From assembly GCA_902776365.1 (NCBI GenBank), contig CACYPU010000007.1:1-64000 (forward strand): 64,000 nt of DNA. Direction: 5' to 3'. Below, piece after piece: positions 1,596 to 62,166 of the stretch. A program made the translations under genes and the position numbers. Source of the stretch: an uncultured Bacteroidota bacterium (lineage in GTDB: Bacteria > Bacteroidota > Bacteroidia > Bacteroidales > P3). The notes under the pieces are model-generated. The model made no database searches. It worked only from the letters and a program-made list of their open reading frames with translations, and was not told where the DNA came from. Numbering within the stretch: position 1 is the first letter of the stretch; every line of letters starts with the position of its first letter.

Positions 1596-2840
1596 TCACT
1601 GTATCAATATCTTGGCAGTCCCTTTGGCGGTCCGGAGTAGGTAGAGACCGGAGGGGAGATTGCTAATGATGAATGATGAATGATGAGTGATGAGAATAAG
1701 GCGGCCGGAGGCATCGTAGAGTTCGATGAGGCTGCCTTCGGGGAGGCCTGTTACTGTTACGCGGTCGGTCGCAGGATTCGGAAAAACGGCAATCCGTTCA
1801 GTTTCCAATGTGGAGATGCCGATATTGTCAGGCAGGTTGTGAATCTCGTCGATATAGTTGATAAATGACGGTGCCAGGAATTGCCAGTATTCGGGCAGAC
1901 GGTCGCTGCTGAGGGTCTTGCGCGTCGAAATCTCCATGGTCATCTCCAGACAGTTGTGGTAATAGTTCACATAGTCTTGCCGTCCGCCGTCGATGACATA
2001 CCAGTCGCCGCCGGCGATATAGCCGCTCGTCGTCACATCGCGGAAATGGCTGTTGCTATACACGCGTGCCGTGTCCACGAAGCGTTTGCACACCGCCTGC
2101 CACCAGTCTGAGGCCGGGTGGGGATTGCTGGCAGAGGTGAAGCTGTCCCACGGATAGTTCATCACCTCGGCGCCGCCGTGCAGGTTGGCGCTCAGGCGAA
2201 AACTATGTGCCGCGAAGTAGTCCATCATCGCCTGGTTCTCTTGTGGCACGTTTTTCGCTGTGACAGAAAAGGGGTTGGGATAGGTGCGGTTGAGGTCTAC
2301 TCCATTGGCATTCTCCCGCTGTGCGCCTTGCACGGTGTGGTCGCCTCGCCGATAGGTGCCGTCGGGGTTCGCCAGAGGGTTGATGCTGATGCGTGTGCGG
2401 TCCATCAGTGAGGTGAGCTCGGGGCTGGTGCCGTAGCTTGTGAGTAGGGTGTCGATGAGTCGCAGCATCATCACGTATCCCGTCACCTCGTCGCCGTGGA
2501 TGGTCGACGAATAGAAGAACTCCGGCCTGTAGAGGTCGGCATCCGTCTGCGACTCGATGTACATGCTCAGTATCAGCCTCCCCTGCACGCTTATGCCGAT
2601 GGTGTCCACATGGCACAATGTCGGGTACTCTTCGGCCCATTGATGCATCATCGCCAGGTAGGTGTCGTAAGTAGGATAGCGGTCCCAGCCGGCCATCTCC
2701 TCCACCGAGGCGGCCATGTTGAGGGCTTTCGTCTCAACGGCTTCTGGCTTCGATGGGAACGCGTCGGGACGCGGCTTCAATTGCGCTGATGCGGAGGCCG
2801 ATAGCAGCAATAGCAGAAGGATAGATAATGTGTGTCTCAT
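1596..2840 (-). CDS. secreted M14 zinc carboxypeptidase with T9SS sorting domain
   Basis: 414 residues with signal peptide MRHTLSILLLLLLSASASAQ. The peptidase M14 domain spans roughly residues 50-330. Zinc ligands are H115 and E118 (STIHGDEVTG) and H221 (SANLHGGAEV). Substrate-binding residues lie in NPLANPDGT and DLNRTYPNP, and the likely catalytic glutamate is E303 in LEMTMEIS. After the catalytic domain comes a T9SS type A sorting domain (VFPNPATDRVTV ... SGLYLLRTAKG), so the enzyme is probably exported and anchored on the cell surface. The sorting domain carries an in-frame GAATGAT-type repeat array (1665-1697) that encodes ITHHSSFIIS. The start overlaps the upstream hydrolase stop by 4 bp (ATGA), so the two are translationally coupled. 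Confidence 0.9.
   Translation of the reverse strand: MRHTLSILLLLLLSASASAQLKPRPDAFPSKPEAVETKALNMAASVEEMAGWDRYPTYDTYLAMMHQWAEEYPTLCHVDTIGISVQGRLILSMYIESQTDADLYRPEFFYSSTIHGDEVTGYVMMLRLIDTLLTSYGTSPELTSLMDRTRISINPLANPDGTYRRGDHTVQGAQRENANGVDLNRTYPNPFSVTAKNVPQENQAMMDYFAAHSFRLSANLHGGAEVMNYPWDSFTSASNPHPASDWWQAVCKRFVDTARVYSNSHFRDVTTSGYIAGGDWYVIDGGRQDYVNYYHNCLEMTMEISTRKTLSSDRLPEYWQFLAPSFINYIDEIHNLPDNIGISTLETERIAVFPNPATDRVTVTGLPEGSLIELYDASGRLILITHHSSFIISNLPSGLYLLRTAKGTAKILIQ
1665..1697. repeat. 7-bp repeat array inside the M14 gene
   Basis: Tandem, slightly degenerate GAATGAT units on the plus strand, translated in frame on the minus strand within the T9SS sorting domain. This is one of the dispersed arrays described in the findings. 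Confidence 0.8.
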
Positions 2841-4072
2841 TTCTTGTTTTTAATCATTTCAATCACCTTGTTGGCTTGGTCGGTGGGGGTGTTCAGTATC
2901 TCCATCACCTTGAAGAGGGCCCTCGTCACGAAGGTCTCCGCCGCTTTCTCATGGGCGGGAGTGTCGGCAGTACCCTCGATATCCTGAATCTGCAAATCGA
3001 TGTTGGCGGCAGGGACGTTGTTGGAAATCAGGAAGTCATACATATTCTGCGTGTTGGCCACCGGTACGGTGATGTCCTTGGTGCTGTGGAAGAGCATGAG
3101 CTTCTCGTTGCCGCGGGGGCTCCACCCCTTGCAGATATTGTCGAGGTCCAGGGCTGCCATGATGTTATGGGAAAGGTCGCTGTTGGTGTCGAGGACGGTC
3201 GCGGTGGCATACTGCGAGAGCGATAGCGAACCCACCATTGCGTCAATCTCCTGACGGGTGTAGCGCTTGCTGAAAATCCAGTCGTCGATGTGACTCAGCA
3301 CCGGCTCGGTGAACATCTCCTCTCGCGCAATACCGAGACTCTTGAATTCGTTATACGACAGCATCACACTGATGACGGTGCTCGGCATGCCGGAGATAGT
3401 AGCAGTGATAAACTGACGGTAGGTCTCCGGGAGGTCGTAGCTGCCTGCTCCAGCAAGGCTGTAGGTGATATTGATGTCGGGATACTTCTCCGCCACCAGC
3501 CTCACCACACCCATCGTCGTCTGGCCTCCCTGCGAGTATCCCGCGTTGAACAGCATGTCGCCCCAGGTATAGCCTTGGGAAGCCATAATCTCCTTGGCGG
3601 CCAGCAAGGCGTCCACACTGGCCTGTGCGTTAGTTTGCGAGAGGCAGTAGGCTTGATGGTGATGCTCCGTGGAACCGAAGCCGTAGTAGTCGGGCGAGAC
3701 AGTGATGAGACTCAACATCGCGGTGTAGCCCTGTTCCATGAGAGAGCCCTTTGACGGGCACTGGTCGGCACGATAGACCGTGAAGTGGTTGTACAGTAGC
3801 ATTCCCTTGGCATAGTGGGCATTCTTCACGCCGTCGCCAAACGAGATGGTGCCCGAGAGCATCACAGGATTGCCGTAGGGGTCCGTCGACGGGTAGGCGA
3901 AATTATACACCGTCATTGATTTGTCGGAGTAGTATGTCGAGTCGGTGATGTATGCCGCCCCCATCGGCAGGTCGCTCGCCGCCGCCTGAGGGTCGTCGTC
4001 CTTCGAACATGATGTCAATGCGTTGAAAACCAGTACTACTAGTGTCCAAAAGAAAATTCTATATCTGTTCAT
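2837..4072 (-). CDS. lipoprotein alpha/beta hydrolase (secretory-lipase-like)
   Basis: 411 residues. The N-terminus is a lipoprotein signal ending in LTSC, with the lipidated cysteine at residue 22, followed by SKDDD, which suggests surface or outer-membrane anchoring. The body has an alpha/beta-hydrolase fold. GYSQGGQTT, near residue 178, carries the nucleophile serine; an acid and a histidine would come from the C-terminal third (LFHSTKDITVPV and TPAHEKA are candidates). DYYGFGSTEH before it resembles secretory lipases and cocaine-esterase-like proteins. The substrate is unknown. It is coupled to the downstream M14 peptidase by a 4-bp overlap, so both may degrade extracellular nutrients. 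Confidence 0.75.
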   Translation of the reverse strand: MNRYRIFFWTLVVLVFNALTSCSKDDDPQAAASDLPMGAAYITDSTYYSDKSMTVYNFAYPSTDPYGNPVMLSGTISFGDGVKNAHYAKGMLLYNHFTVYRADQCPSKGSLMEQGYTAMLSLITVSPDYYGFGSTEHHHQAYCLSQTNAQASVDALLAAKEIMASQGYTWGDMLFNAGYSQGGQTTMGVVRLVAEKYPDINITYSLAGAGSYDLPETYRQFITATISGMPSTVISVMLSYNEFKSLGIAREEMFTEPVLSHIDDWIFSKRYTRQEIDAMVGSLSLSQYATATVLDTNSDLSHNIMAALDLDNICKGWSPRGNEKLMLFHSTKDITVPVANTQNMYDFLISNNVPAANIDLQIQDIEGTADTPAHEKAAETFVTRALFKVMEILNTPTDQANKVIEMIKNKK

Positions 4073-4107
4073 CTTTGATGTTTTTTTTTAAGAAAACATT
4101 AAGTTTT

Positions 4108-6744: not shown

Positions 6745-6756
6745 GGGGAGAAAAAA

Positions 6757-6788
6757 GTTTAAAGTTTAAAGTTTAAAGTTTAAAGTTT
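6757..6788. repeat. GTTTAAA tandem array in the nitroreductase leader
   Basis: Four perfect 7-bp units GTTTAAA plus a GTTT half unit, directly before the nitroreductase start codon. It belongs to the dispersed array family. Confidence 0.85.
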
Positions 6789-6832
6789 GTTACACAATAT
6801 ATTATGTGGTAAAAACGATTGCTTTCCGAAGA

Positions 6833-6923: not shown

Positions 6924-6998
6924 GATCTGCTAGCTCAGTTGGTTTAGAGCGCTTGCTTGACAGGCAAGAGGTCACAAGTTCAAATCTTGTGCAGATCA
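6924..6998 (+). tRNA. tRNA-Val (anticodon GAC)
   Basis: All four arms can be folded. The acceptor is GATCTGC / GCAGATC with discriminator A (6998). The D arm contains GCTC..GAGC. The anticodon arm is CTTGC-TTGACAG-GCAAG, giving anticodon GAC. The T arm is ACAAG-TTCAAAT-CTTGT. No CCA is encoded. The 3' end from 6983 is also the left attachment core of the integrated element; integration has kept the tRNA intact. Confidence 0.95.
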
Positions 6999-6999
6999 C
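6983..6999 (+). other. attL core, 17-bp direct repeat
   Basis: AATCTTGTGCAGATCAC covers the 3' part of the T arm, the acceptor strand and one base beyond tRNA-Val. The identical 17 bp recur at 11969-11985. Such tRNA 3'-end repeats are the standard target of tyrosine integrases, and an integrase gene begins about 200 bp inside. Confidence 0.9.
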
Positions 7000-7030: not shown

Positions 7031-7113
7031 TTGTAAAACTACTGAAAATCAATGCAGTTATAAGGGTTTTCGGTGTATAATAAGAATGGCGTTTTTTGCA
7101 TAGTATTTTATCT

Positions 7114-7146
7114 TTTTTGACACATTTTTGTCACATTTTTGTCACA
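7114..7146 (+). repeat. three tandem 11-bp repeats at the left end (possible arm-type sites)
   Basis: TTTTTGACACA (7114-7124), TTTTTGTCACA (7125-7135) and TTTTTGTCACA (7136-7146) are head to tail, between attL and the integrase promoter. Two more copies lie inside the right end (11888-11909). The position and repetition suggest integrase arm-binding sites or excisionase sites. Confidence 0.65.
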
Positions 7147-7150
7147 CGAT

Positions 7151-7181
7151 TTTGCCATGTCAAAAATATTGTGTATCTTTG
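7151..7181 (+). promoter_or_regulatory. integrase promoter
   Basis: TTTG at 7151-7154, a 19-bp spacer and TATCTTTG at 7174-7181. It directly follows the 11-bp repeats and places the transcription start about 15-20 bp before the ATG at 7204. Confidence 0.8.
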
Positions 7182-7203
7182 CACCGACAAAAAAGAAAAA
7201 GAT

Positions 7204-8364: not shown

Positions 8365-8376
8365 TAACAATACACA

Positions 8377-8637
8377 ATGGAAAAGAAGATTCAATTTGAT
8401 ATGTCGGAATGTCCAGTAAAGCACATTTCACAGGTTGCGGCCGTTATAGATGCGGTGCGTGAAGAAATAATAACTTGTATTGCGAGAGAAGAGAATGATA
8501 GTCTTTCGGTCGGAACAAGTGAGGCAAGTGTAAATGTGCTGCGGTGGTTGAGGGATACTTTTAACGATGCGGCCGTATCAAATGGAGAGCAGCCATATTA
8601 TATGACCGACACAAAACATTCGGTGTGGAACCTGTAA
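8377..8637 (+). CDS. small protein of unknown function (element)
   Basis: 86 residues starting MEKKIQFDMSECPVKHISQV, 12 bp after the integrase stop and so probably on the same transcript. It appears soluble with mixed helices and no signal peptide; LRWLRDTFNDAAVSNGEQPY is the most distinctive part. I recognise no family. Codon use and composition match the rest of the element. Confidence 0.65.
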   Translation: MEKKIQFDMSECPVKHISQVAAVIDAVREEIITCIAREENDSLSVGTSEASVNVLRWLRDTFNDAAVSNGEQPYYMTDTKHSVWNL

Positions 8638-8661
8638 TAGGAGAATATCCTCAACCAAAAG

Positions 8662-9375: not shown

Positions 9376-9406
9376 TCTATAACTCTAATATATAGTTGTT
9401 TAAGTT

Positions 9407-9439
9407 GGGTAAAGGTTTAGTAAATCTTTACCCTTTTTT
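9407..9439 (+). terminator. rho-independent terminator
   Basis: GGGTAAAG (9407-9414) pairs with CTTTACCC (9426-9433). The stem extends inward through GTTT/AAAT, and a run of six T follows. It ends the integrase transcription unit. Confidence 0.9.
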
Positions 9440-9488
9440 CTTTAATTTGTTTGTTTTCAAGGGCGTAACAACATTAAATTAAAGAAAT

Positions 9489-10147: not shown

Positions 10148-10151
10148 TGAA

Positions 10152-10172
10152 GTGTTGCAATTTTTGCAACAC
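10152..10172. repeat. perfect 9-bp inverted repeat upstream of the rep gene
   Basis: GTGTTGCAA (10152-10160), a 3-base loop, then TTGCAACAC (10164-10172). No T run follows, so it is not a typical terminator. It lies in the 161-bp gap before the replication gene and could be an operator or part of a rolling-circle origin. The remainder of the gap shows no other clear element. Confidence 0.55.
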
Positions 10173-11847: not shown

Positions 11848-11853
11848 CAAGCA

Positions 11854-16107: not shown

Positions 16108-16947
16108 ATGGTACGCGAAGAAACCGTTTTTGGACCTATATTCAGCCGGCGACTCGGCAGTTCGCTGGGCATCAACCTACTGCCCGAGAAGGGCAAGATT
16201 TGCAACTTCGATTGCATCTACTGCGAATGCGGCTGGAACCGCGACGGCCGCCACGACACCGTCCTCCCCACCGCTGAGAAAGTGCGCACCGACCTCGAAC
16301 GAAAGCTCAGAGAATGCGTTAATGCGTTAATGTGTGAATGCGTGAGTGCTGACGCATCAAATACTAACACAATCACACAATCACACAATAACGCAATCCA
16401 AATCGACAGCATCACCTTCAGTGGCGACGGCGAACCCACGCTGAATCCCGAGTTCCCGCAGATTATCGACGACACCCTGCGCCTCCGCAACCAATACTAT
16501 CCCCAGGCCAAAGTCAGCGTCCTCAGCAATGCCACACGAGTCCATATCCCCGAGGTTTTCAATGCTTTGCGCAAGGTTGACAACCCCATCATGAAAATCG
16601 ACGCTCCCACCAACGAGCTCATCGAGAAGATTAATATGCCCGCCCCGGGCTACGACATCGCCCGCGTCATCGAGGCCCTCAAGCAGTTCGAGGGCAACTT
16701 CGTCCTCCAGACCTGCATGCTGAAGGGTAATGGATTTGACTCCGCGAGCCCCGAGGTGATAGCTCCGATGATGGATATTGTCCGGTTATTAAAGCCCCGC
16801 GAGTGGATGGTCTACACCATCGACCGTGCTACCCCCATGCAGGGTCTCCAGAAATTCACTCCACAAGAGATGAAAACCCTCGTCCAACCCATTATCGATG
16901 AAGGAATTACAAAGGTTCAAATCAAGGGTGCCGTAGAGGATTTGTAA
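16108..16947 (+). CDS. radical SAM protein (COG0731-like)
   Basis: 279 residues. KICNFDCIYCECGWNRDGRH near residue 31 is the CxxxCxxC motif that holds the 4Fe-4S cluster, preceded by FGPIFSRRLGSSLGINLLP as in COG0731 (wyosine-synthase-like) proteins. ITFSGDGEPTLNPEFPQII is the SAM-binding GGE-like block. MLKGNGFD and EWMVYTIDRATP follow. About 25 residues between the first helix and the ITFSGDGEP strand (around residues 70-97) are an insertion relative to the family and are encoded by repeat array 16312-16396. The reaction is unknown; it probably modifies a nucleic acid or protein. Confidence 0.85.
   Translation: MVREETVFGPIFSRRLGSSLGINLLPEKGKICNFDCIYCECGWNRDGRHDTVLPTAEKVRTDLERKLRECVNALMCECVSADASNTNTITQSHNNAIQIDSITFSGDGEPTLNPEFPQIIDDTLRLRNQYYPQAKVSVLSNATRVHIPEVFNALRKVDNPIMKIDAPTNELIEKINMPAPGYDIARVIEALKQFEGNFVLQTCMLKGNGFDSASPEVIAPMMDIVRLLKPREWMVYTIDRATPMQGLQKFTPQEMKTLVQPIIDEGITKVQIKGAVEDL
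16312..16396. repeat. inverted pair of arrays around GCTGACGC inside the radical SAM gene
   Basis: Left array with GCGTTAAT/GTGTGAAT units, then GCTGACGC (16348-16355), then an array of ACAATCAC units that is roughly the inverted complement of the left one. The frame stays open through all of it. Confidence 0.8.
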
Positions 16948-16971: not shown

Positions 16972-17014
16972 CCATTGTTCTTTCATTGTTCTTTCATTGT
17001 TCTTTCATTTTAAT
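16972..17014. repeat. 11-bp tandem array TTCTTTCATTG
   Basis: Three units between the convergent radical SAM and hydrolase genes (16948-17027). Flanking CCATTG and CAATGG form a weak inverted repeat. Confidence 0.75.
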
Positions 17015-17027
17015 GGAAAAACAATGG

Positions 17028-18395
17028 TTAAATTCCTAGTATCCAATCGGCGATGGTTTCCATGACCCATGGATAGATGGTCTCTTCGATTTGAACGTAC
17101 TCGTCGGGGGAGCCTGTCTGGCAGCGCTGGAAGAGGTGGTTGAGATTCTGTAGCTGGCGGCAGACGGCCTGTGGGCAGAGTTGGTGGATGCGGTCGAGGT
17201 TGGGAGAGGGGAGTACCTGGCAATCCTTGCTGCCGTTCAGAGCCAGCACAGGACATTTCACTTTTGGGAGGTAGTCGGCGGGGTCGAGCAGGATGAAGGT
17301 GCGCATCCAGCGTGTGTCCATCTGTTGCTTGAAGGTATAGGCTGCCCCTTTCTTGAGTCCGATGCTGTCAATCTGTTCTTTGGAGAGACCCTCGGTGTGG
17401 CGGTTGATGACGGCTTGGTAGTCTTTCTGGCTGCTACCGGCGAGCAGGGCGAAGAGCTCGCGCATGCAGGCGATGCGGATGGCAACGAGTTGTGGACTGA
17501 CCCCTTCGGCGTGGAACAGGGCCTCGTTCTGCTGTAGCAGCACGTCGTGACCCGAACAGCCTTGTCCGGCAAGCATGACGACGAAGCGGACGTCTTTGTT
17601 GCGAGAGGCGACGATGGGGGCGATGGCGCCGCCTTCGCTGTGGCCGCCGATGCCGAGGTGTGAGGGGTCTACGTGGGGGTTGGTCTTCAGGGTGTTGAAG
17701 AGGGCTTCGGCGTCCTCGGCGAAGAGGTGGGTGTCGGCGGAGTCGACGGGGCCGGTGCTGGCGCCGACGCCGCGGTCGTCGTAGCGGAGGACGGCGATGC
17801 CACGCGAGGCGAGGTAGTCGGCGAGGACGAGGAAGGGGCGGTGGAAGAAGAGTTCTTCGTCGCGGTTCTGCTGGCCGCTGCCGGAGACGAGGAGGAGGGT
17901 GGGGTATTTCCCGCCCCCTTTGGGGTAGGTGAGGGTGCCTTCGAGGTGGATGAGGTTGCCCTGGGAGTCGGTGTAGTCGACGGAGACGGTCTCCTCGTCG
18001 AAACGGTAGGGAGGCTGCGGGGTTTGTGGGCGGCGCAGATGGTAGAGGGTGTCGGCGGGATGGAAGGTGATGTCTTCCTTGAGGATGCCTTGGCGCCAGT
18101 TGCCCACCCAGAGGCTATCTTGCCGCACGAGCGTCATTTTCAGGCCGATGCTGCCGCAGTTGAGCCGCAGGGTGTCGTTGCGCAGCGACCACTTGCTGAC
18201 AGGGATGGGATCGGAGGTCTGCAGCGGGCTGTAGAGTTCGTAGGTGCTGTCGGAAAGATGGATGCACAGGGCGAGGCTCGTCTGCTGGCTCCATCCCGTC
18301 CACCATTGCTGGGCGTGAGCCGAATTGAAAATTGAAAATTTAAAAATGAAAATTATGCTGACGCAGACGATTTGACGCAACCTTGCTGCTCTCAT
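17028..18395 (-). CDS. secreted alpha/beta hydrolase
   Basis: 455 residues. The signal peptide (residues 1 to about 29) contains FIFKFSIFNSAHAQ, which is encoded by a repeat array. A beta-rich N-terminal region (residues 30-150) is followed by the hydrolase domain: LLLVSGSGQQNRDEELFF (oxyanion region), VLRYDDRGVGASTG, LGIGGHSEGGAIAPIVAS with the nucleophile serine, LNGSKDCQVLPSPN for the acid and LNHLFQ for the histidine. This matches periplasmic serine-aminopeptidase or esterase-like hydrolases. The substrate is unknown. The stop lies near a repeat array and the gene converges with the radical SAM gene. Confidence 0.85.
   Translation of the reverse strand: MRAARLRQIVCVSIIFIFKFSIFNSAHAQQWWTGWSQQTSLALCIHLSDSTYELYSPLQTSDPIPVSKWSLRNDTLRLNCGSIGLKMTLVRQDSLWVGNWRQGILKEDITFHPADTLYHLRRPQTPQPPYRFDEETVSVDYTDSQGNLIHLEGTLTYPKGGGKYPTLLLVSGSGQQNRDEELFFHRPFLVLADYLASRGIAVLRYDDRGVGASTGPVDSADTHLFAEDAEALFNTLKTNPHVDPSHLGIGGHSEGGAIAPIVASRNKDVRFVVMLAGQGCSGHDVLLQQNEALFHAEGVSPQLVAIRIACMRELFALLAGSSQKDYQAVINRHTEGLSKEQIDSIGLKKGAAYTFKQQMDTRWMRTFILLDPADYLPKVKCPVLALNGSKDCQVLPSPNLDRIHQLCPQAVCRQLQNLNHLFQRCQTGSPDEYVQIEETIYPWVMETIADWILGI
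18322..18364. repeat. AATTGAA/AATTTTC array ending in GCTGACGC
   Basis: AATTGAAA-type units followed by GCTGACGC (18357-18364). It encodes the hydrophobic core of the hydrolase signal peptide. Confidence 0.8.
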
Positions 18396-18424
18396 AATTT
18401 TTAATTTTTAATTCTCAATTATTT
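18396..18424. repeat. TTTTAAT array between the hydrolase and ABC permease genes
   Basis: TAATTTT-type 7-bp units that fill the short gap between the two genes and run into the last codons of the permease. Confidence 0.6.
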
Positions 18425-35995: not shown

Positions 35996-36007
35996 AATCG
36001 GTATCGC

Positions 36008-46212: not shown

Positions 46213-46304
46213 TAATGTTTAATGGTTAACGGTTAATGTTTAACGATTTAACATGGCTTGCGGCAGCCCCGTTAACCTTTAATCATTAAACTTTAACCTT
46301 TATC
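46213..46304. repeat. inverted pair of GGTTAA / TTTAACC arrays
   Basis: AATGTTTAATGGTTAACGG-like units (46213-46252), a GC-rich centre (TGGCTTGCGGCAGCCCCG) and AACCTTTAATCATTAAAC-like units (46271-46304). It is the leader of the DUF6266 gene. The rest of the gap to 46500 is AT-rich and holds the terminator. Confidence 0.75.
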
Positions 46305-51492: not shown

Positions 51493-52302
51493 TCAGCCTT
51501 CGAAGGTGAAGCTGAGCATGAAGGTGCGGGTGGTGAGGTTGTTGAAGGAGCTGATGTAGATGTCGGGGTCGTCGACCTTGAGGTCGAGGAGGCCGAGGTT
51601 CATCTTGAACTCGATGGCGAACTTGACGTAGCGGAGGAAGACGTCGAAGCCCACGCCCATGCTGTAGCGGAGGTCGTGGGGCTGGAGGCGTATGATGCTC
51701 TGGTCGCTGCGGTTCTTGTTCTCGCGCAGCGAGGCGAAGTCGAAGCCGTAGGAGACGCCGGCGGTGAGGTAGGGGCGGAAGTTGCCGTAGCGTTTGGCGC
51801 GGAATTTGAGCTCCAGGGGGATGTCGCCGTAGACGGACTCGACGTTGCGCCAGCGTTCGGCGAGGGGGTGGGTGTTCTGGTAGGTGGGGTCCCAGGCGTA
51901 GGTGACCTGGCGGGTGACGAGGGTGACGCCCGGCAGCAGGCGGAGGTTGAACCAGTCGTTGAGGCGCAGGTCGCCGATGACAGCGATGTGGAAGCCGGCG
52001 GCATAGTAGGAGGTGACGCCCTGGAGGCTCTGGCGGATGACGGCGTCGTCGCTGTATTCGAGGTCGAACATCGACTGGGTGTAGCCCACCTGGATGCCGT
52101 AGTGCAGCAGCCGCGAGTCGAACTTGCCGAGATTGCCTACCTGGGAGTGCAAGGGAGTGCAAGGGAGTGCAAGGAGGAAAAGAAGGGGAAGGAGGAGTGC
52201 AGGGGAGTGCAGGGGAGTGCGGGGGAGTGCAGGGACAAATGTGCAAAGCGGTGCTTTTGTCCTTGAACTCCTTGAACTCCTTGAACTCCTTGAACTCCTC
52301 AT
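51493..52302 (-). CDS. porT: PorT-family outer-membrane protein of the type IX secretion system
   Basis: 269 residues from the ATG at 52302, which overlaps the asparaginase stop (ATGA). The first 60 residues are repeat-encoded: RSSRSSRSSRSSR, then the signal peptide core LPRTPLHSPALLLPLLFLLA. From GKFDSRLLHYGIQVGYTQSM on, it follows PorT: DIPLELKFRAKRYGNFRPYL, then LRYSMGVGFDVFLRYVKFAI, EFKMNLGLLDLKVDDPDIYI and the closing FMLSFTFEG. PorT is needed for T9SS assembly. Several T9SS clients are encoded in this window. Confidence 0.85.
   Translation of the reverse strand: MRSSRSSRSSRSSRTKAPLCTFVPALPRTPLHSPALLLPLLFLLALPCTPLHSQVGNLGKFDSRLLHYGIQVGYTQSMFDLEYSDDAVIRQSLQGVTSYYAAGFHIAVIGDLRLNDWFNLRLLPGVTLVTRQVTYAWDPTYQNTHPLAERWRNVESVYGDIPLELKFRAKRYGNFRPYLTAGVSYGFDFASLRENKNRSDQSIIRLQPHDLRYSMGVGFDVFLRYVKFAIEFKMNLGLLDLKVDDPDIYISSFNNLTTRTFMLSFTFEG
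52138..52236. repeat. GGGAGTGCAA arrays in porT
   Basis: Three GGGAGTGCAA units (from 52142), then a purine-rich stretch, then GGGAGTGCAGGGGAGTGCAG units to 52236. They encode the porT signal peptide region. Confidence 0.85.
52259..52299. repeat. CTTGAACTC array in porT
   Basis: Four 9-bp units CTTGAACTC plus a partial copy. They encode the RSS repeats at the PorT N-terminus. Confidence 0.85.
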
Positions 52303-53364: not shown

Positions 53365-53398
53365 GCGTCAGCTATAATTTTCAATTTTCAATTGTCAA
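53365..53398. repeat. GCGTCAGC followed by a TTTTCAA array
   Basis: GCGTCAGC (53365-53372), then TATAATTTTCAATTTTCAAT-like units. Intergenic, reaching the end of the C10 peptidase gene. It closely matches the array at 18322-18364. Confidence 0.8.
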
Positions 53399-56300
53399 TT
53401 TAAAATCACGTGCTGCACCGCCGTGCCTTGTCGGGTGTGGATGCGCAGGAGGTAGCTGCCGGCATTCAAGGTGAAAGGTGAGAGGCGGAAGGTGAAAGGT
53501 GAGTTGTCGACTTCCGAAGAGAAGACCAGACGGCCGTTGAGGTCGAAGAGCTCCACGGAGAGGATGTCGTCGGCGTCGATGGTCAGCAGGTCTGAGGTGG
53601 GGTTAGGGTAGATTTTGATTGCTTGAATGCTTGATTGTGTGATTGCTTGAGTGGGAGTGATGGTCAGCAGAAGTGTCACGGTGCTGTCGCAGCCCTCGGC
53701 GGTGGTGCCGTTCCAAGTGTAGGTGCCGCTCTCGGTGTAGGTGGTGCCGTGCCAGCTGTAGCTGCCCTCGGCGGTGTCCGTCACCGTGGTCTCCGTACTG
53801 TAGTTAATGGTGAGGTGGAGGGTGAGGATGCTGTCGCAGCCGTTGGTGGTGACATTCCACCATTGGTGTTCGTAGTCGCCTGAGACATCATAGCCCATGT
53901 TGCCGTACCAGACGAACAGGTCGCAGGCTGTTGCCGTGGTGTCGGCGGTGGCGCTATGGTTGATGGTGAGGTGGAGCGTGAGGACGCTGTCGCAGAACTG
54001 GCTGTTTTGATTCACCGTGTCACGGTAGGTGTAGTCGCCGCTGGCGGTGTAGATGGCGCTGTTCCAGTCCCACTGGTAGCTGTCGCAGCTGACGGCCGAC
54101 ATCTCGCCGTAGGTGGTGTAGTTCACCGTGAGGTCGAGGAAGAAGATGCTGTCGCAGCCCACGGTGTTGGGGACGGTGAGGTATTGGATGCCGTAGGCCG
54201 AGGCAGTGTAGGTGGTGCCATACCAAGTGATGCTGTCGCAGACCTCCTCGTCGACTATCACGGTGTCGTTGTGGTTGATGGTGAGGTAGAGCGTGTCGTC
54301 TTGCGTGCAGCCGTTGACGTCGGTATGGGTGTAGTGGTACGTGCCGGAGGTGGTGATAACGGCCTCCTGCCAAGTGTAGCTGTCGCAGGCCGTCACAGTG
54401 GTGGCGGTGTGAACGGGGTTGTTGATGGTGAGGTTTAAGATTGCGATTGAATCGCAGCCCACACTGTTGGTAGTGGTATCGGAGTATTGACCACTGGTAT
54501 ATTGCCATTCTCCATTCCAGAAATAGGCCTCACAAGCTGTCGCCGTTTCGCTGGAGGCAGTGCTATAGTTAATGGTGAGGTGCAGCGTGTCGACCTGTGT
54601 GCAGCCATTGTCATCGTTGTGTGGGTATGTGTAGTCGCCAGACGTGGTGATTGTTGCGCCGTTCCAAGTGTAGCTGTCGCAGGCGGTCACAGTGGTGGCA
54701 GTGTGGACGGGGTTGTTGATGGTGAGATAGAGGGTCGCGATGCTGTCGCATCCGGCGATGTTGGTGAGTGTGTCGGTGTATTGGCCGCTGGCGTATAGCC
54801 ATTGTCCGCCGAAGAAGTAGCTCTCGCAAGCCGTTGCAGTTTCGTTGGCAGAGTTGCTGTGGTGGACAAAGAGATAATGCGTCACAATGCTGTCGCAACC
54901 GTCGAGGGTGCTGAGGGTGTCAATGAGCACCGCATCGGCGGTGTATGTGATGCCGTGCCACGTATAGCTGTCGCAGACGGTAATGCTGTCGTTGCCGATG
55001 GCAGGGGTGCAGGGGATGACTGCGAAAACAGGGTAGCCACCATTGAACATTGCCGTGTCCGCCGCCCAATGGCTGTATTGACCATCGTTGTTGTTGGCAT
55101 CCACCCAGGCGTTGAGGGCATCGACCAAATTGGAATAGGATGAACCGTTAATTGTTGGAGGCGCATTTAAGTTCCATACACATCCACTACCTGTGAAACT
55201 GGAAATATTGGCCGTGTCACTATTGCTACTAGTTATGGGAAGAGATGTTGAAAAATCTTTAAAATAGCAATTTGCTATACTGTCAGGAAAACCTCCTGAT
55301 CCAGTAAGGATTCCTGTATAATTGGCATTGCTATCAATTTCAGCAACGACATAGCAGTTCTTAAGGCTGCATTTTGTAAATGAACCACATATTCCGCCAG
55401 CATATCCTCCTATCGAATTAGTCCTTGTAATATCATCTCGAACTAATACTGACCCTCGGAAAAAAGAATTGGCCATGACAGTCCCACTCTCATCATTCAT
55501 ACTACCGTAATGACGGCCAGTGATGCCACCGACATTTTCGATGCCAAGCACCGCTCCCTCAGCAGCACAATTAGTAATTGTCACGGAGTTTAAAATACTT
55601 AACTGGTCTATACCAGCAGCACTGCTGGCATATCCAATCAAAGACCCAACATAGTTTTTCCCCTGTACATTAACTTGTTTTAAAATGATGTTTTTTATAG
55701 CCCCATTGACCATGAAGCCAATTAATCCCTGAAAATCTTCCAACTCGTTACAGTACAGTCCTGTAATTGTATGATTGTTACCATTAATGGTTGCTCCCTG
55801 TAAACAATGTGAAACATCTTTGCCAATGGGAGTCCATCTATATTCACTTATGTCAATATCCTCTGTTAAAATAATATTTTTGTTCATGAATCTATTTGAA
55901 GAAAATGGAACTCCATTCAATCCATTTGCTACACTCGACAACCATGCCAAACCTTCAGCAGAAGAGATGTACACATTCCCTTCAGCATCTTCGATGTATC
56001 CTTCGGGATGAGATGTCACCACTTCTGTCCAACGAAGTTTGTCTGGCATATATGAAACTTTATTACTCCATCCACTCTCATCGCCGCTGTTACATATAGC
56101 TCGAACATAGAAATCCAAGGGTTGTCCAACAGGTATTCCTGTTAGAATGCATGGATTGCTATTGACGGAAACAATCACGCCAGAATCAATGGTGTGCTCA
56201 GACGCAACATATAGAACCTCCCAATGGTTTGGTTCCCCAATCTGTGTCCAGGACAACTCGGTCTGGATAACGGTATCACCTATGAGGGTGGCATTTATAA

Positions 56301-59300
56301 CTGACAAATCTGTGGGATTGTAACAGGAAGGCTCATAATAATCACCAAAGATTGGGTATCTTGTGAGTGTATCAATAATCCATGTTTTCAATGTTGGTTC
56401 ATTAAAGTTTAAAACCCAACCATTCATTACATCCACAAGAGAGGAGAACATAGTTCCATTTATTGAAATTGGTGTTGATAACAAACAGTTTCCATTTTCT
56501 ATATAAAATCCGGAATTGTCTTGATAATCGTCACAGAAGTTTCCTATCAGTGGCATATTTGAAGATGTGGAATCATAATATCCATAAATATTGTGTATGT
56601 GTGTATTGATGTAAGGACATCCAATAACTATACCAACAAAATTCGATTGAGGAGTAAATTCAACATGTCCGGAAGAATAACAGTTGTATGCGTGGGCGTG
56701 CATAAAATTTCCAATCAAGCCGCCACGATACCAAGAATTGCCTGCTCCATATTGAAGTACATTACCTGTAGCAAAACAATTTTGTATGGTTACATTTCCA
56801 CGAACTTCACCTATCAATCCTCCGCATCCTCTTGACCCGTGAACATCTCCTGTAGCAGAACAATTTTGTATGATGGACATGGTATTGTCAGTAATATTAT
56901 TTATTGAACCCACAAGTGAACCCACGTCCATGTTGCCAAATACTTCGACAGATGAGTGGCAATTGATTATATCAACATCATTAGCGGCACAACCTAAAAC
57001 ACCTCCTATACTGGTGCAAGTTCCATTAAGTTCATCATCAGGCTCTGTCGACCAGGAACTCATTACTGTTCCACCGTCCATGATGATATTTTTAATGGTT
57101 GTTTTGCCATAATAGTACATGTATTGATTAAATGGTTGTATTATTCCAAACAAGCCTAACCCGGAATTTGTATCATTTACGTATATATTGGAAATGACAT
57201 GGTTGTTTCCGTCAAAAGTACCCCAAAAAGTAGTACGTCCGTCCCATATAAAAAATTGTCCGTAACTATAATGTTTACCAATAGGATTCCATCTGTATGC
57301 GGACAAGTCAATATCCGACATCAAGTAGACGGTCTTTCCTAAGTATGTTTGTTGCTGTTGGCCGTTTAGACCATTTACTTTGGCGGAAAACCAAGCAAGC
57401 CCTTCTGCAGAATAAATGTATGCGTTACCTAAAGAATCCTCAACATAACCTTCCGGCTGTACCTTGACAATGTCTGTCCAGTAAGGATCAATGTAAACCT
57501 GTCTTTTTATCCATGACGAAAAAACACCGGAATCGCAAATAGAACGTAAGTATATGTCATAGGTCATATATCTAGACAAATTGTTGATGGTTATTTCTGA
57601 ATCATTGGAATAGATCGATGTCCCATTGCCTAGAACGAATCCTTGGGGGCCGTATTCTATCTGCCATTGCTGGGGAATAGTGTCAGAGTACCATGTTATG
57701 TGCGCTGATGATGTGTCCCTGTCAATGATGATATTTGTTGGAGCAGGACAGTCGCTGTTTTTTCTTAAATATAGGCCGAACCCTGCATCGTTTGGAAAGC
57801 CACTATAATGTATCGTAATTGCATTATTGGTCGTATTTATGGAATGAACAAGTGTATTTTGGTTCCCAATCCATTCATTCATACCATATCCATTGTAGAA
57901 ATCAAAATATTGATTACAATAAAACAATTTGTCTACAAATATTCTTTCGGCCGTGTCATAACAATAAAACATTATTGTATTATTACAATTATTGCTATAA
58001 TGTACGCCGGTATAACTGTTATGCCCCATTAAATGATATAATTCAATCGGTTCATTCAGAACAAATGTGCTTGTACCAGACATTTGCCCGAGAATGACGT
58101 TGCCGGTGCTATCGGGAATAATGCCGATAAGAGCAGTTTGATTACTGTTAAACGAATTAACCGCACTAGTGAGGTACCATCCATCACTATAACCGTTCCA
58201 TCCAAAATTGAAATGGAAAAAACCACCTTGTTTATAACCATCGCAGACAAAAGCATGCCCCCCTTCATAACTATCCCCACAATAAAGAATCGGACGCCCC
58301 ATTTCCAAATCCTGGATAAGCATCATTTGCCAATTTGTATCGGCAAAATGACATTTTACCGCATAATTGATGTTGGGACTGAGGCGAAAGAAATTAATAA
58401 ATCCCGCGCGGGCATCATAATCATAAGCTCCGCTCTCGTTGGGCCCATAGCCCATATTGGCGGCCACGCCACAGTCGCGCATCAGGGTGGCGACGGCATT
58501 GACCTCTTGCGGGGTGCTGGTGGCGGTGAGGACGGTGGGCATGTGGGCGTAGTCGTAAGAGGCACTGTCGTAGTTGACCGAAAGGGTGCCGTAGTTGGAT
58601 TGGTAGCTGTGGGAACCTCGGCCGTGGATGGGGTAGCCCCAGTAGTTGATGATTTGGGCCATGGCGGTGGCAACACAGCCGGTAGGTACATGACCGTTGT
58701 AAGGACTGGTGGCGTCCTCGGGACAGAGGACGTTGTAGTACTGGCCTTGGCTCCAGGTGGTGGTGAGGAGGGGACCGACGGAATCGGGTAGATTAGTGGT
58801 AGTTAATAGATGAGAGTTAAGAGATAATAGTTGTTGCCATTCGGCGGAAGTTTCTTCAATTGAGAATTGAGAATTGAGAGTTGAGAATTCGGCTGACGCG
58901 GCTTCGATTTGGGTGGCGAGGTCGTCGAGATAAGAGGCCACCTGCGGTGGCAATGTTGAATGATGAGTGTTGAATGATGAATGTTTAGAGACAGAAGGTT
59001 GTTCGTCATTCATCATTCCTCGTTCATCATTAATTATGGGCCAGGGGCGGCTGAGGCTGTAGCCGAGGACGGGATGGGCGATGTCGTCGGCGGAGACGAG
59101 GACGAACATGTTGCCGATGTTGACGGCATACATGGCGGGTTGGCCGCTCTTGGGCATGGGGTGGGTGTAGACCACCGTGGCTTCCATCTGGTCGGCGCCC
59201 TTGACATACTGCGCCATGAAGTTCTTGGCCACCAGCAGGGCCTTTTGAGGCTTCACCGGCGATGCCATCACCGAAAGACCTGTCAGGGTCAGCAGCAAGA

Positions 59301-59545: not shown

Positions 59546-62080
59546 CTATTCGGGGTCGGGCTCGTCGTAGAGGGAGTGGTAGACTTCGTAGCGTTGCATC
59601 TTGAGTTCGCCGTTGCGGATGGTGAAGAGGCTGACGGTGGTGCTTTCGGGTGCGCCGTGGATGTGGCAGAAGTCGGGGCCGTCGGGGCCTTCGAATGCCA
59701 TGATGCTGCCGGGGAAGTACTCACCGCCGTCGTCGGCATTCCAGGTGGGGCCGTAGACGTTGTCGTAGTAGCCTTCCATGGGGTAGGCATAGGTCTTGCC
59801 GTCGACAATGAAGACCTCGAGGGCAAGGGCTACCTGTGTAGTGTCGCCGTATTCGCTGATGCGGGTCTTCCAGGGACCCTTGAACTGGATGACGCCGTAG
59901 GAGTAGCGGTCGTTGTACTGCATGAGCAGGCTGCGGGTGGCCTTCATCTTGTATTGCTTCTCGAGCTGCATGACGACCTTAGCGGGGAGGGGTTGCACGG
60001 CGTCGTAGTCGCTGTTGAGGTGGATGAACTCGTGGTTGCGGAGGTAGTCGTTGGTGACGACGACCCACATGCCCCACATTTCGTCTTCCGACAGCATGTT
60101 GCCGGGGTAGGCGAAGGCGTAGTTCAGGCCCGGGGAGGGGATGGAGGGGCGGCTGTGGAGCTCGCCGGGGTAGATGTCGCGGCCTTTGGAGTCCTTGAGG
60201 GTCTCGCCGAGGTATTTGAGGATGCAGGCTTTGCCGGAGGGTGTGATGAGGTTGGTGTACTGCGCGGCGTTCTGGCGGAAGTTCTCCTGCAGCTCCCAAC
60301 GCTGGTGCTCGGCTTCGTAGTAGTCGGCGCTCTCATCGTTCAGCACAGGTTCTTTCACATCGCTCCAGTAGACCATCTGCATGTGGTCCTTGTCGAGGAT
60401 GTAGAGGAACATGGGGGGGGGCTGACTGCTTGACTGCTTGATTGTTTGAGTGCTTGAATTGGCTGACGCGGACTGTTGGTCGGGGCCGATGGCGCGGCCG
60501 GTGATGTCCATGGGGTAGGGGTTGGGGGAGAAGAGGTTCTTTTGGCCCGACTGGTCAGCCATGTTCATGGTGCCGAGGTTTTCGGTGGGGTGGTATATCT
60601 CGCAGCCCTGGAGGACGAAGGGGTAGTCGAAGTCGAAGAGTCGGGAGTCGCCGTTGTTGGCGTAGAAGCGGCAGTCGGAGAAGGAGACGCCCTTGCTTCC
60701 GCGGCTCTCGATGAGGCCGTACTCCCTGTTGTTGAGGAAGTCGCAGGAGGTGAAGGCGATGTTCTGCGAGCTGATGAGCTGCAGGATGCCGTAAGTGCAG
60801 TCGTGGACCTTGCAGTTTCGCACGTTCAAGTTGAGACTCCCAATGATGTCGAATCCATAGGTGCCGCAGCCGTAGAGGTCGCAGTCGAGGACATCGAGGC
60901 CTGTGCTTTTCTTCACGCCGATGACGCCGCCGGAGCAGTAGCCGAATTCGGTGTGGCCGATGGTGAGGTTCTCGACGTGGCAGTTGTTGCAGTTGATGAA
61001 GTAGAGACAGTAGGAATAGCGTGGGGCGACCTCGATGCTGGAGTTGCCGGCGCCACGGATGGTGAGGTTGTCGATGTTGACGAGGTCGAGCTGCCGGCCG
61101 TCGGTCTCGCTCTCGCTGATGACGAGAGGAGTCGTGCCGATGAAATCGTCACCTGACAGGGCCCAGCGGCGGCCGGGGTTGTTGGTGAAGAGACTCTCGT
61201 TCTCGAGCACACGTGAGAGGTTGAGGTGCACGTTCTTGGCGATGACAATGGTGCGGTTGGGCCCCAGGGCCTTGAGGAACTCGCGTTCGTTGGTGACGGT
61301 ATAGGTCATCACGCCGTTGATTTCTTCGGGACCGCGGCCGTCGTCGGCCAGGCCACCGGGGAACATGTCGGGCGAGAGCATGCTGTAGCGGTAATCGTCG
61401 GGTGTAGCCTCCTCGGCCTTGATGAGTTCTAGGTTGGTGCGTTCGAGGTCGCTAAGCTGGATGGTGCTGTTGTCTTTGACAGGTTTGTACCAGGCCTGCT
61501 TGGCAAAGTAGTCCTGCAGGTCTTTGGACTGGAAGCGCCAGCCATGTCGGGCGAGGATTTCGTTGCGCATGAGGCGCAGCTCCTCTTTTGGGAAGCGTGC
61601 CAAGTAGGTGGTGTTGAGCAGGTAGGTGGTGAGGACGTCGGAGGTGGGCATCTGCTCGAGGTTGCGCTCCATGAGGGTGCAACGCTGCAGGTCGGCATCG
61701 AGGTAGTATCTCAGCGTCCAGGCGGCGTCGCCCCTGTCGTTGTAGAAGACAAGGAAATGGGACACGCGGTCGATGAAGAGTTTTTTCACTCTGGCCCCTT
61801 CGTTGATTCGCAGGGCGATGGCACCGTTGTGGGAGAAGACGGTGTAATTGTTGTCTTGCTCCATCCAGATGAGGGTGATGGTGTAGTCGTCGCCATTGAT
61901 GTCTTTGCCGTTGAGTTCCACAGCGCCGCGGTCATACACCGTGGCCTTGTAGAAGATGGCACCGTCCCAGAATTTGTCACCGTTTTGGATTTGCTGGGCT
62001 TCACAAATTGAGAATTGAGAATTGAAAATTGAGAATAAGCTGGCGAAGAGGATTAGGGAGCGAAAGGACAAATGCTTCAT
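59546..62080 (-). CDS. secreted YARHG-domain and right-handed beta-helix protein
   Basis: 844 residues. The signal peptide (ILFASLFSIFNSQFSICEAQ) is partly repeat-encoded. A beta region (residues 30-150) precedes the YARHG domain (ELRLMRNEILARHGWRFQSK, then WYKP; about 160-225). Residues about 275-510 are a right-handed parallel beta-helix with NCHVENLTIGHTEFGYCSGG, LDVLDCDLYGCGTYGFDIIG and NVRNCKVHDCTYGILQL. A third region (from about 570) has no known domain. A repeat array (60421-60470) codes for the linker SANSSTQTIKQSSSQ. No T9SS tail is visible. Beta-helix proteins bind or cleave polysaccharides; none of this is shown here. Confidence 0.75.
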   Translation of the reverse strand: MKHLSFRSLILFASLFSIFNSQFSICEAQQIQNGDKFWDGAIFYKATVYDRGAVELNGKDINGDDYTITLIWMEQDNNYTVFSHNGAIALRINEGARVKKLFIDRVSHFLVFYNDRGDAAWTLRYYLDADLQRCTLMERNLEQMPTSDVLTTYLLNTTYLARFPKEELRLMRNEILARHGWRFQSKDLQDYFAKQAWYKPVKDNSTIQLSDLERTNLELIKAEEATPDDYRYSMLSPDMFPGGLADDGRGPEEINGVMTYTVTNEREFLKALGPNRTIVIAKNVHLNLSRVLENESLFTNNPGRRWALSGDDFIGTTPLVISESETDGRQLDLVNIDNLTIRGAGNSSIEVAPRYSYCLYFINCNNCHVENLTIGHTEFGYCSGGVIGVKKSTGLDVLDCDLYGCGTYGFDIIGSLNLNVRNCKVHDCTYGILQLISSQNIAFTSCDFLNNREYGLIESRGSKGVSFSDCRFYANNGDSRLFDFDYPFVLQGCEIYHPTENLGTMNMADQSGQKNLFSPNPYPMDITGRAIGPDQQSASANSSTQTIKQSSSQPPPMFLYILDKDHMQMVYWSDVKEPVLNDESADYYEAEHQRWELQENFRQNAAQYTNLITPSGKACILKYLGETLKDSKGRDIYPGELHSRPSIPSPGLNYAFAYPGNMLSEDEMWGMWVVVTNDYLRNHEFIHLNSDYDAVQPLPAKVVMQLEKQYKMKATRSLLMQYNDRYSYGVIQFKGPWKTRISEYGDTTQVALALEVFIVDGKTYAYPMEGYYDNVYGPTWNADDGGEYFPGSIMAFEGPDGPDFCHIHGAPESTTVSLFTIRNGELKMQRYEVYHSLYDEPDPE
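60421..60470. repeat. CTTGATTG/CTTGACTG array ending in GCTGACGCG
   Basis: GCTGACTGCTTGACTGCTTG-like units, then GGCTGACGCG (motif 60462-60470). In frame in the beta-helix gene. Confidence 0.85.
62005..62037. repeat. AATTGAG array in the beta-helix protein signal peptide
   Basis: AAATTGAGAATTGAGAATTG-like units, in frame. Confidence 0.8.
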
Positions 62081-62116
62081 ATTATAATTTATTTAATAAT
62101 ATTCCTTATTTTCAAT

Positions 62117-62166
62117 AACCGTTAACCGTTAACCGTTAACCATTAACCATTAACCATTAACCGTTA
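62117..62166. repeat. CCGTTAA/CCATTAA array upstream of the beta-helix gene
   Basis: Seven 7-bp units: three CCGTTAA-type, three CCATTAA-type and one CCGTTA. The array fills most of the gap to the next gene. Confidence 0.9.

What the first reader, a model, noticed from the sequence alone, without database searches (positions are those of the whole stretch)
1665..62166. Dispersed short-period repeat arrays throughout the chromosome, in genes and between them
About thirty arrays of 25-100 bp, made of degenerate 7-bp (sometimes 8-11-bp) units, lie roughly every 2 kb: for example 1665-1697, 6757-6788, 16312-16396, 18322-18364, 32518-32554, 34054-34090, 41697-41730, 42580-42620, 43012-43045, 52142-52170 and 62117-62166. 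Unit sequences differ from array to array (GTTTAAA, GTGGGTA, CACCTCT, CCGTTAA, AATTGAG), so this is not one repeat family spreading by copying. It looks like a process that makes local tandem repeats. More than half of the arrays are translated in frame. None lies in the integrated element. I have seen NSQFSI-like stretches in Bacteroidetes proteins before but know of no described element or mechanism.
Basis: partly seen in the sequence, partly recalled or inferred. Interest (0 to 1): 0.85.

Follow-up and report, generated by a model that had tools for sequence, protein, structure and literature searches.

The report
Dispersed hairpins armed with tandem repeats
A gut-type Bacteroidales genome is peppered with short hairpin-forming DNA elements whose two arms are stacks of 7-to-11-base repeats; they recur at many sites, sit in frame inside ordinary genes, and often change their repeat unit between species while keeping the hairpin.

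Summary
The arrays are real: 112 of period 7 in 464 kb (window plus 400 kb of the same genome), mean 0.0 in five local shuffles; 80 of 149 lie in called genes. Units are shared between sites (GTGGGTA: 132 matches genome-wide, 0 for the reversed pattern). Neighbouring arrays of period 7-8 and opposite orientation run G-rich, core, C-rich: 24 pairs, none reversed. The core GCTGACGC lies 3' of the G-rich array in 12 of 145 and 5' in 0. Whole-element copies (82-92% alike in one family) stand in unrelated flanks. At orthologous positions another species carries an array in 52 of 133 comparisons (random windows 84 of 4000); in 31 of the 52 the unit differs. Best reading: non-autonomous MITE/REPIN-like foldback palindromes with slippage-prone tandem-array arms, dispersed within genomes and tolerated between genes, in signal peptides and in protein loops. 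No mobilising enzyme was found and no clean empty site seen. Novelty: a new variant of known kinds (REPINs, Rickettsia palindromic elements, heptamer repeats).

The parts
1664..1694 (+). (AATGATG) array in frame in the Por-tail region of an M14 peptidase gene
   Evidence: TRF, lag 7, translation reads THHSSFII, Pfam
6753..6789 (+). (AAAGTTT) array just upstream of the start of a nitroreductase-family gene
   Evidence: identical in related genome G056
16310..16397 (.). palindromic element with 8-bp arms (AATGCGTT; inverted GATTGTGT), core GCTGACGC at 16348-16355, in frame in a radical-SAM gene; G056 has an unrelated 30-nt stretch here
   Evidence: DNA fold z -3.24
16972..17011 (-). 11-bp (AATGAAAGAAC) palindrome between convergent genes; separate terminator-like class, one of 7 copies aligned
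18322..18420 (.). palindrome AATTGAA arm, TTATGCTGACGC core (core 18357-18364), inverted AATTAAA arm, over the 5' end (signal peptide) of a hydrolase gene
   Evidence: DNA fold z -2.43
28190..28220 (+). (AAATTGA) array in the signal-peptide part of a TonB-dependent receptor gene
32518..32552 (-). (AAAGGTG) array in frame in RNase R (GERLKVKGER); other species carry other units or none in the same loop
33712..33741 (+). (GGTTTAA) array between the M3 peptidase and RNase R genes
34051..34084 (+). (GTGGGTA) array in frame in M3 peptidase (THYPLPT); G047 and G015 (L042, L046) carry a full AATTGAR palindrome here, G046 (L030) a short GGTGAAA palindrome
34549..34590 (+). (GTGGGTA) array followed by GGCTGACGCGG (34580-34590), second in-frame site in M3 peptidase; AGTGTTA in G002
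41697..41728 (+). (CACTAAA) array in frame in UvrB, in the linker before the UVR motif
42050..42127 (.). palindrome AGTGGGT arm, CACATGTGGACCAATG core, CTATCCA arm, in frame in a FAD-dependent protein gene
   Evidence: DNA fold z -3.56
42579..42620 (+). 10-bp (CCCAGCACTC) array in the same gene
43009..43045 (-). (AGGTGAG) array in frame in the same gene (SPLTSHLSPLT); no array seen in G046, G002, G056
44557..44590 (-). (ACACTGA) array in frame in a sulfatase-family gene
46213..46302 (.). intergenic palindrome TAATGGT arm, GGCTTGCGGCAGCC core, TTAACCT arm
   Evidence: DNA fold z -4.02
52142..52300 (.). large palindrome GGGAGTGCAR arm, GGACAAATGTGCAAAGCGGTGCTTTTGTCC core, TTGAACTCC arm over the likely start/signal peptide of an outer-membrane protein gene; four related species have palindromes of other units at this site
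   Evidence: DNA fold z -4.48
53365..53401 (-). AATTGAA array with GCTGACGC core (53365-53372) across the 3' end of a C10 peptidase gene
58857..58901 (+). (AATTGAG) array followed by TTCGGCTGACGCGG, in frame in the C10 peptidase gene (C-rich strand is sense)
58952..59031 (.). AATGATG array and inverted TTCATCA array in the same gene
60423..60471 (+). 8-bp (TGACTGCT) array followed by GGCTGACGCGG; interval of 57 nt against 15 nt in G002 and G056
62005..62036 (+). (AATTGAG) array in a signal peptide (FSIFNSQFSI); GGTGAAA in G056
62115..62166 (-). (TAACGGT) array between genes, 7.3 units

Best explanation
The arrays are the arms, whole or decayed, of short (about 60-160 bp) non-autonomous palindromic elements: a G-rich tandem array, a short core, and an inverted C-rich array. 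Shown here: elements of one family stand at unrelated loci with unrelated flanks, a core lies on the inner side only, element number varies from none to many among species of one genus, and one core variant is almost private to one species. Inferred: dispersal as a unit, by an enzyme acting in trans that I could not identify. After insertion the arms change length and unit by replication slippage and multi-unit duplication, and the two arms stay complementary, most simply by template switching within the hairpin. Copies survive where they do little harm: between genes, in signal peptides and in surface loops of proteins, where selection keeps the frame open.
For: Units recur: GTGGGTA 132 matches, reversed control 0; 34 classes for 112 arrays. 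Polarity of period-7/8 pairs within 60 bp: 24 '+-' (21 own, 3 other samples), 0 '-+'. Core GCTGACGC 3' in 12 of 145 arrays, 5' in 0; the same core follows different units: AATTGAA and AAAGGTG, GTGGGTA and TGACTGCT, AGTGGTC in G001, AATTTAT (L186, L187). Whole copies: five TTGTACGATAC copies, 82-92% over 92-99 bp, unrelated flanks. Orthologous sites: 52 of 133 have an array against 84 of 4000 random windows; 31 of the 52 differ in unit. Arms change together: at the 52142 site within-species pairing of the two halves averages -40.5 kcal/mol, between species -23.2, shuffled -24.7 (five species, one site). AATTGAR matches 0 to 180 among 31 genus genomes. Core variant GCTGCCGC in 8 of 9 G037 places, 0 of 80 others. 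In 17 copies open through on the G-rich strand the in-frame TGA of the third unit is gone by several different substitutions (0 of 17 keep TGA; 29 of 38 others keep it), and 15 of 17 share one phase.
Against: No transposase is tied to the elements: among the 12 Y1-transposase loci held, one (L064) has a period-7 array and a GCGTCAGC in its flanks, one more (L069) a GCGTCAGC, and three (L061, L062, L068) arrays of period 9 or 11; G037 and G051, with 9 and 12 core places, have no Y1_Tnp and no RVT_1 hit (they are 85% and 64% complete). No clean empty site: the nearest relatives are 83-86% identical over the tested genes and the loop itself differs, so target duplications could not be read. Outer ends are ragged. 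At least 127 of 145 arrays have no CTGACGC, either way round, in the 45 nt 3' (14 + 4 have). The 11-bp AATGAAAGAAC palindromes run the other way, C-rich arm first, and were not in the polarity count. In P. distasonis AATTGAR palindromes have other cores. In one search some cross-species pairs beat own pairs: G009's left half pairs better with the right halves of the own genome (-33.8) and G002 (-28.8) than with its own (-24.9), and the own left half with G002's right (-30.5) beats G002's own pair (-28.8). The reversed-pattern control for AATTGAR is not clean (own 15 against 86; G023 20 against 24; G506 17 against 15), probably because the reversed word is itself a heptamer of this kind. One search is partly circular, since 'open' excludes stops. 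The comparisons are reciprocal and not independent.
Confidence: 0.6

Rival explanations
1. Local slippage only: tandem arrays arise independently at each site by polymerase slippage with a preferred step of 7 (the reader's idea; cf. the slippage proposal for heptanucleotides cited in PMC4679880 and PMC4692102).
For: Fairly homogeneous arms, periods 7-11 and multiples, a 21-bp higher-order repeat; units differ at 31 of 52 orthologous array-bearing intervals.
Against: Unit sharing across loci, one-sided core, 24:0 polarity, whole-element copies in unrelated flanks, a core variant almost private to one species.
Confidence: 0.12
2. Fixed hot spots with ectopic gene conversion: the palindromes are old and stay in place, and their units are overwritten by other arrays of the same genome; no transposition is needed.
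For: Positions are conserved (52 of 133 against 2.1% of random windows) while units change; a species-specific core variant and unit variants that differ between species in the listing.
Against: Shared tracts are tens of bp, short for RecA-type conversion (general knowledge); match numbers of 0 to 180 within a genus need gain or loss of sites; 81 of 133 orthologous intervals lack an array.
Confidence: 0.18
3. Functional RNA or DNA hairpins (terminators, attenuators, protein-binding sites) kept by selection at their sites.
For: Hairpin kept while sequence changes; 15 of 37 11-bp arrays lie between convergent genes and 36 of 37 are intergenic.
Against: 80 of 149 period-7 arrays are in CDS and only 1 of 149 is between convergent genes; in the window no Rfam family matches them; the AATTGAR form has no match in 6 of 31 genus genomes.
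Confidence: 0.08

Closest known systems
REPINs / REP elements (PMC3116915: abstract and outline seen; PMC3733652: passages seen)
   Same: Short repeats dispersed in high copy, inverted doublets forming hairpins, mostly head-to-head, non-autonomous; PMC3733652 lists CGTC-tagged REPs also in Bacteroidetes.
   Different: REP units are single short stem-loops (stems 5-13 bp) with GTAG or CGTC tags; here each arm is a tandem array of 7-11 bp units and about half of the period-7 arrays lie in genes. No array-flanked Y1 transposase in the own genome.
Rickettsia palindromic elements (described in PMC10969869 and PMC3733652: passages seen)
   Same: Palindromes of about 150 bp inserted in frame in unrelated metabolic genes.
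   Different: The passages seen do not describe tandem-array arms or a change of unit; another phylum.
BrickBuilt MITE of Porphyromonas gingivalis (PMC4596501: abstract and passages seen)
   Same: A Bacteroidales MITE-like element that carries a tandem array whose unit number varies between strains.
   Different: 23-bp unit between leader and tail, always intergenic, 19 copies in ATCC 33277; here the arrays are the inverted arms, 7-11 bp, also in genes.
Heptamer tandem repeats of Beggiatoaceae, Cyanobacteria, Bacteroidetes (TAACTGA; PMC4679880: abstract and passages seen) and of Xanthomonas and Nostoc (GGGAATC type; PMC4692102: passages seen)
   Same: Dispersed heptamer arrays, some in Bacteroidetes, where other heptamers may stand beside them and relatives may lack the repeats; PMC4692102 notes some inverted pairs.
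   Different: Both papers follow one main unit per genome; the passages seen describe no core, no in-frame family and no exchange of unit at orthologous sites. In the BOGUAY genome TAACTGA arrays sit mostly just upstream of start codons.
Foldback-like elements such as Drosophila Galileo (PMC4168063: passages seen)
   Same: Inverted terminal repeats that can be extended by internal tandem repeats.
   Different: Eukaryotic, kilobase-long, own transposase; analogy of architecture only.
Borg tandem repeats (PMC9879509: passages seen)
   Same: Tandem repeats in and between genes under frame constraint.
   Different: Borg units are inferred to arise from local sequence and to be unique per locus; here units and cores are shared between loci.

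Membership tests
MITE | short, non-coding, many dispersed copies with unrelated flanks | tested here: met
MITE | terminal inverted repeats | tested here: met
   inverted arms
MITE | target-site duplication | tested here: inconclusive
   none seen by eye in the alignments; outer ends ragged; no clean empty site
MITE | terminal repeats match those of a resident autonomous element | not tested
   only Y1_Tnp and RVT_1 genes were sought
REP/REPIN | inverted doublet forming a hairpin with fixed polarity | tested here: met
   24 to 0 for period 7-8; folds
REP/REPIN | REP unit is one short stem-loop with an unpaired GTAG or CGTC tag | tested here: inconclusive
   arms are tandem arrays; the core GCTGACGC holds GACG (rc CGTC), and in some elements the core is itself a small stem-loop (e.g. 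TGCTGACGCAA..TTGCGCAGCA at C1:365844); not tested systematically
REP/REPIN | RAYT gene flanked by the elements | tested here: not met
   own Y1_Tnp hit lies on C3:60-80 kb, which has no period 5-12 array; of 12 Y1 loci held one (L064) has a period-7 array; weak rank correlation rho 0.58, p 0.023, n 15
Rickettsia palindromic element | palindrome inserted in frame in conserved genes | tested here: met
   RNase R, M3 peptidase, 17 open-through copies
Rickettsia palindromic element | sequence homology to a described RPE family | not tested
   no RPE sequence was fetched
BrickBuilt MITE | 23-bp unit, always intergenic | tested here: not met
   units 7-11 bp; 80 of 149 period-7 arrays in CDS
Heptamer simple repeats (LSSR/STRR) | excess of period-7 arrays over shuffled sequence | tested here: met
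   112 against 0.0
Intrinsic terminator | located downstream of genes, as between convergent genes | tested here: not met
   period 7: 1 of 149 between convergent genes; but 11-bp class 15 of 37

The most novel reading that the evidence does not exclude
A dedicated, so far unknown system in Bacteroidales both disperses these foldback elements and rewrites their arms: a polymerase primes at the core and lays down a repeat unit outwards on both sides, so that unit and hairpin change together at a fixed site (arm rewriting in place), giving species-specific repeat dialects and frame-adapted coding cassettes that supply signal peptides and loop inserts.
Probability: 0.2. Interest if true: 0.85.

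Novelty: new variant of a known kind. Interest (0 to 1): 0.62.

Why it matters
Heptamer arrays have long been noted in bacteria, with slippage as the usual explanation. Here many of them prove to be arms of dispersed palindromes with a core, a polarity and an orthologous-site history, which makes their origin testable. The elements also feed new peptides into conserved enzymes and make up parts of signal peptides, so they are a visible source of protein change in gut Bacteroidales; a kindred form occurs in the culturable Parabacteroides distasonis.

Tried and rejected
Rejected: chance; one wholly independent array per site; assembly artefact; reverse transcriptase as resident mobiliser (RVT_1 in 25 of 59 genus genomes, none in G002, G051, G037, which are rich in cores; rho -0.17, n 15). 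Not rejected but unproven: RAYT/Y1 transposase (40 of 59 genomes; the own genome has one partial hit on C3 in a stretch of GC 0.41 without arrays; rank correlation 0.58, n 15, phylogeny not corrected; flanks of 12 loci, of which L064 has a period-7 array and GCGTCAGC). Known RNA family: in the window only a cobalamin riboswitch and the tRNA. A search for other enriched palindromes in the own genome gave mainly AT-rich words and array words. The order-wide core search (198 genomes) found 12 places in the own genome (reversed control 1) and in 57 others 1 to 4 each, which looks like background, so the GAAAATT-core form is not general in the order; the named-genome scan gives it in many rumen and gut Bacteroidales records, while some of its 99 stretches are array-free chance matches, also in other phyla. 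The phylum search (198 genomes) found AATTGAR arrays in 9. Strain comparison in P. distasonis failed: each of three loci matched only its own record. Empty sites: none clean. Phages: 3 weak records; plasmids: 13 records, 12 of them Parabacteroides or Bacteroides, and the ones viewed look like chromosome pieces by genes such as carA and ribosomal proteins. Nine paper searches on heptamer repeats, in-frame palindromes, MITEs of Porphyromonas, foldback elements and P. distasonis repeats listed no title or abstract start that describes this architecture; only the open-licence library was searched.

Full report
Observation. The window carries many short tandem arrays, chiefly of period 7. At lag 7 there are 12 segments with at least 17 of 18 matches, against none in 20 local dinucleotide shuffles. 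The window is contig C7:1-64000 of a 2.23-Mb, 18-contig genome. In the window plus 400 kb of contig C1 there are 112 period-7 arrays, and a mean of 0.0 in five shuffles. With periods 6-12 merged there are 259 array loci in 764 kb.

Units are shared. The unit GTGGGTA, three copies with up to two mismatches, occurs 62 + 70 times in the genome and 0 times for the reversed pattern (overlapping positions are counted). Of the 112 arrays 46 belong to three unit classes. Of 149 period-7 arrays in 764 kb, four without a G/C bias were dropped; of the other 145, 139 have RRTK in the consensus unit in the G-rich orientation, against 80.7 (sd 5.4, maximum 99 of 500) for shuffled units; of 36 distinct units 30 do, against 18.2 (maximum 27 of 500). 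Longer periods show kindred words: AATGYGTT and GATTGYTT (8), GGAGTGCAA and GGTTTAAAA (9), GGGAGTGCAA (10), AATGAAAGAAC and TTGTACGATAC (11).

Anatomy. Arrays of period 7 or 8 (relaxed criterion) within 60 bp of each other and of opposite G/C bias always run G-rich, spacer, C-rich: 21 in the own genome and 3 in other samples; the reverse order was not seen (same-orientation neighbours: 14 own, 2 other, and one pair with a neutral partner). In some of these pairs the two units differ. The 11-bp AATGAAAGAAC palindromes run the other way. The spacer often holds a core. GCTGACGC occurs within 45 nt 3' of the G-rich array in 12 of 145 cases and 5' in 0; CTGACGC has 14, and its reverse complement 4, against 0 and 0. 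Across named genomes the form AATTGAR-AATT-nn-GCTGACGC was found in 99 stretches (80 held as loci), many of them rumen and gut Bacteroidales, some as higher-order tandems (L157, 68-nt step; L192, 58-nt step). The same core follows other units. Single-stranded DNA folds of five window elements have z-scores from -2.4 to -4.5.

Dispersal. Comparing the 259 loci with each other gave 1398 matching pairs at E 1e-4, many owed to shared units alone, but the longest run over whole elements. Five TTGTACGATAC copies (82-92% over 92-99 bp) and seven AATGAAAGAAC copies (roughly 75-95 bp) align and show no evident similarity beyond their edges. Within the genus the AATTGAR pattern has 0 matches in 6 of 31 genomes and up to 180 in others; in the family 35 of 101 genomes and 5 of 12 genera have it (overlapping positions are counted, and the reversed control is not zero in several genomes). 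In the core search of 59 genus genomes there are 89 places; the variant GCTGCCGC makes 8 of 9 places of G037 and none of the other 80 (read off the listing). This is what recent within-genome spread would give; concerted evolution would also do.

Orthologous sites. I compared the window with syntenic stretches of five relatives. In 133 comparisons with both flanks aligned at 65% identity or more, the other species has an array (2-mismatch criterion) in the interval in 52 (36 by the stricter one), against 84 of 4000 random windows; the unit is the same or one base off in 21 and different in 31 (reciprocal, not independent). RNase R holds AAAGGTG in the own genome and G046 (L030), AAAGTGG in G056 (L040), AATTGAR with core in G015 (L046), GGAAAGC in G042 (L057), and no array that I can see in most other rows. 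At 52142-52300 five species have palindromes of different units; halves pair within a species (mean -40.5 kcal/mol) better than between species (-23.2) or when shuffled (-24.7), with the exceptions given under evidence against.

Genes. With a simple codon-usage caller, 80 of 149 period-7 arrays lie in CDS: 17 in the first 40 codons, all with the C-rich strand as sense, and 63 further in, 47 of them C-rich sense. An AATTGAA array reads as one repeated heptapeptide in all three frames of the C-rich strand, but has TGA every 21 nt in each frame of the G-rich strand; hence the bias (read from the sequence). In 55 database copies with array arms and enough flank (of 85 matches), 17 are open through on the G-rich strand; 0 of 17 keep TGA in the third unit from the core, which is AATTCAA (6), AATGGAA (4), AATGGAG (3), AGTTTAA (2) or alike, and 15 of 17 share the phase N-S-A-D-A; 29 of the 38 others keep TGA. 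Openness excludes a stop by definition; the informative points are the variety of substitutions and the common phase. Upstream CTGGGC (14 of 145 against 0 downstream) and downstream TTTTTCAT (7 against 0) fit signal peptides read backwards, from AQ to MKK.

Other taxa. P. distasonis TSDC17.2-1.1 records hold AATTGAR palindromes in the same polarity but with other cores, sparsely: four period-7 arrays in 150 kb; one array-like stretch lies in the annotated carA frame. Four genomes of one family in another class also hold AATTGAG-type arrays; the few of their arrays that I fetched lack the core.

Mechanism. Shown: shared units, core, polarity, dispersed whole copies, unit change with arm complementarity at fixed sites, frame adaptation. 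Inferred: dispersal in trans as with REPINs or MITEs, arm change by slippage, arm-to-arm copying in the hairpin. Not shown: an enzyme, target duplication, or present-day activity. The Y1 transposase family correlates weakly with array number (rho 0.58, p 0.023, n 15, phylogeny not corrected), and one of the 12 Y1 loci held has a period-7 array beside it.

Comparison with the literature. REPINs share the inverted doublet (PMC3116915, abstract), RPEs the in-frame insertion (PMC10969869, passages), BrickBuilt the tandem array in a Bacteroidales MITE (PMC4596501, abstract and passages), and heptamer repeats the period (PMC4679880, abstract and passages; PMC4692102, passages). None of the texts I saw describes palindromes with tandem-array arms that change unit between species. 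I therefore call it a new variant of a known kind.

Noticed in passing
window 7096-11936: Integrated element beside tRNA-Val (6924-6999) with a tyrosine integrase; related TTTTTGTCACA repeats near both ends (7105-7165, 11879-11917) look like integrase arm sites.
   Followed up: partly
window 35810-36002: Cobalamin riboswitch ahead of a Por-tail secreted protein gene (36125-37765) that has a 441-bp tandem duplication (36647-37522).
   Followed up: no
window 53395-59319: A 1974-aa C10 peptidase gene with Spi-like inhibitor domain and Por tail; several arrays (58800-59031) lie between the inhibitor and peptidase domains.
   Followed up: no
G000 C3:53926-65027: The only RVT_1 and Y1_Tnp hits of the own genome lie within about 11 kb of each other; the fetched part (C3:60001-80000) has GC 0.41 and no array of period 5-12.
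   Followed up: partly
L031, L032, L034 (relatives G022, G002, G007): Array-free alleles of the RNase R and M3 loops share a small palindrome GACGG(n)CCGTC (peptide DGTxV); it did not appear in the own-genome palindrome list.
   Followed up: partly
own genome, 11-bp arrays (window 16972-17011 and others): 36 of 37 11-bp arrays are intergenic, 15 between convergent genes; a separate terminator-like class.
   Followed up: partly
L064 (G023:C24, Y1 transposase locus): The only one of 12 Y1 loci with a period-7 array and GCGTCAGC within its flank; a lead for the mobilising enzyme.
   Followed up: no
NZ_OY725748-NZ_OY725759: PLSDB plasmid records of P. distasonis TSDC17.2-1.1 carry ribosomal-protein and carA genes and look like chromosome pieces.
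   Followed up: no
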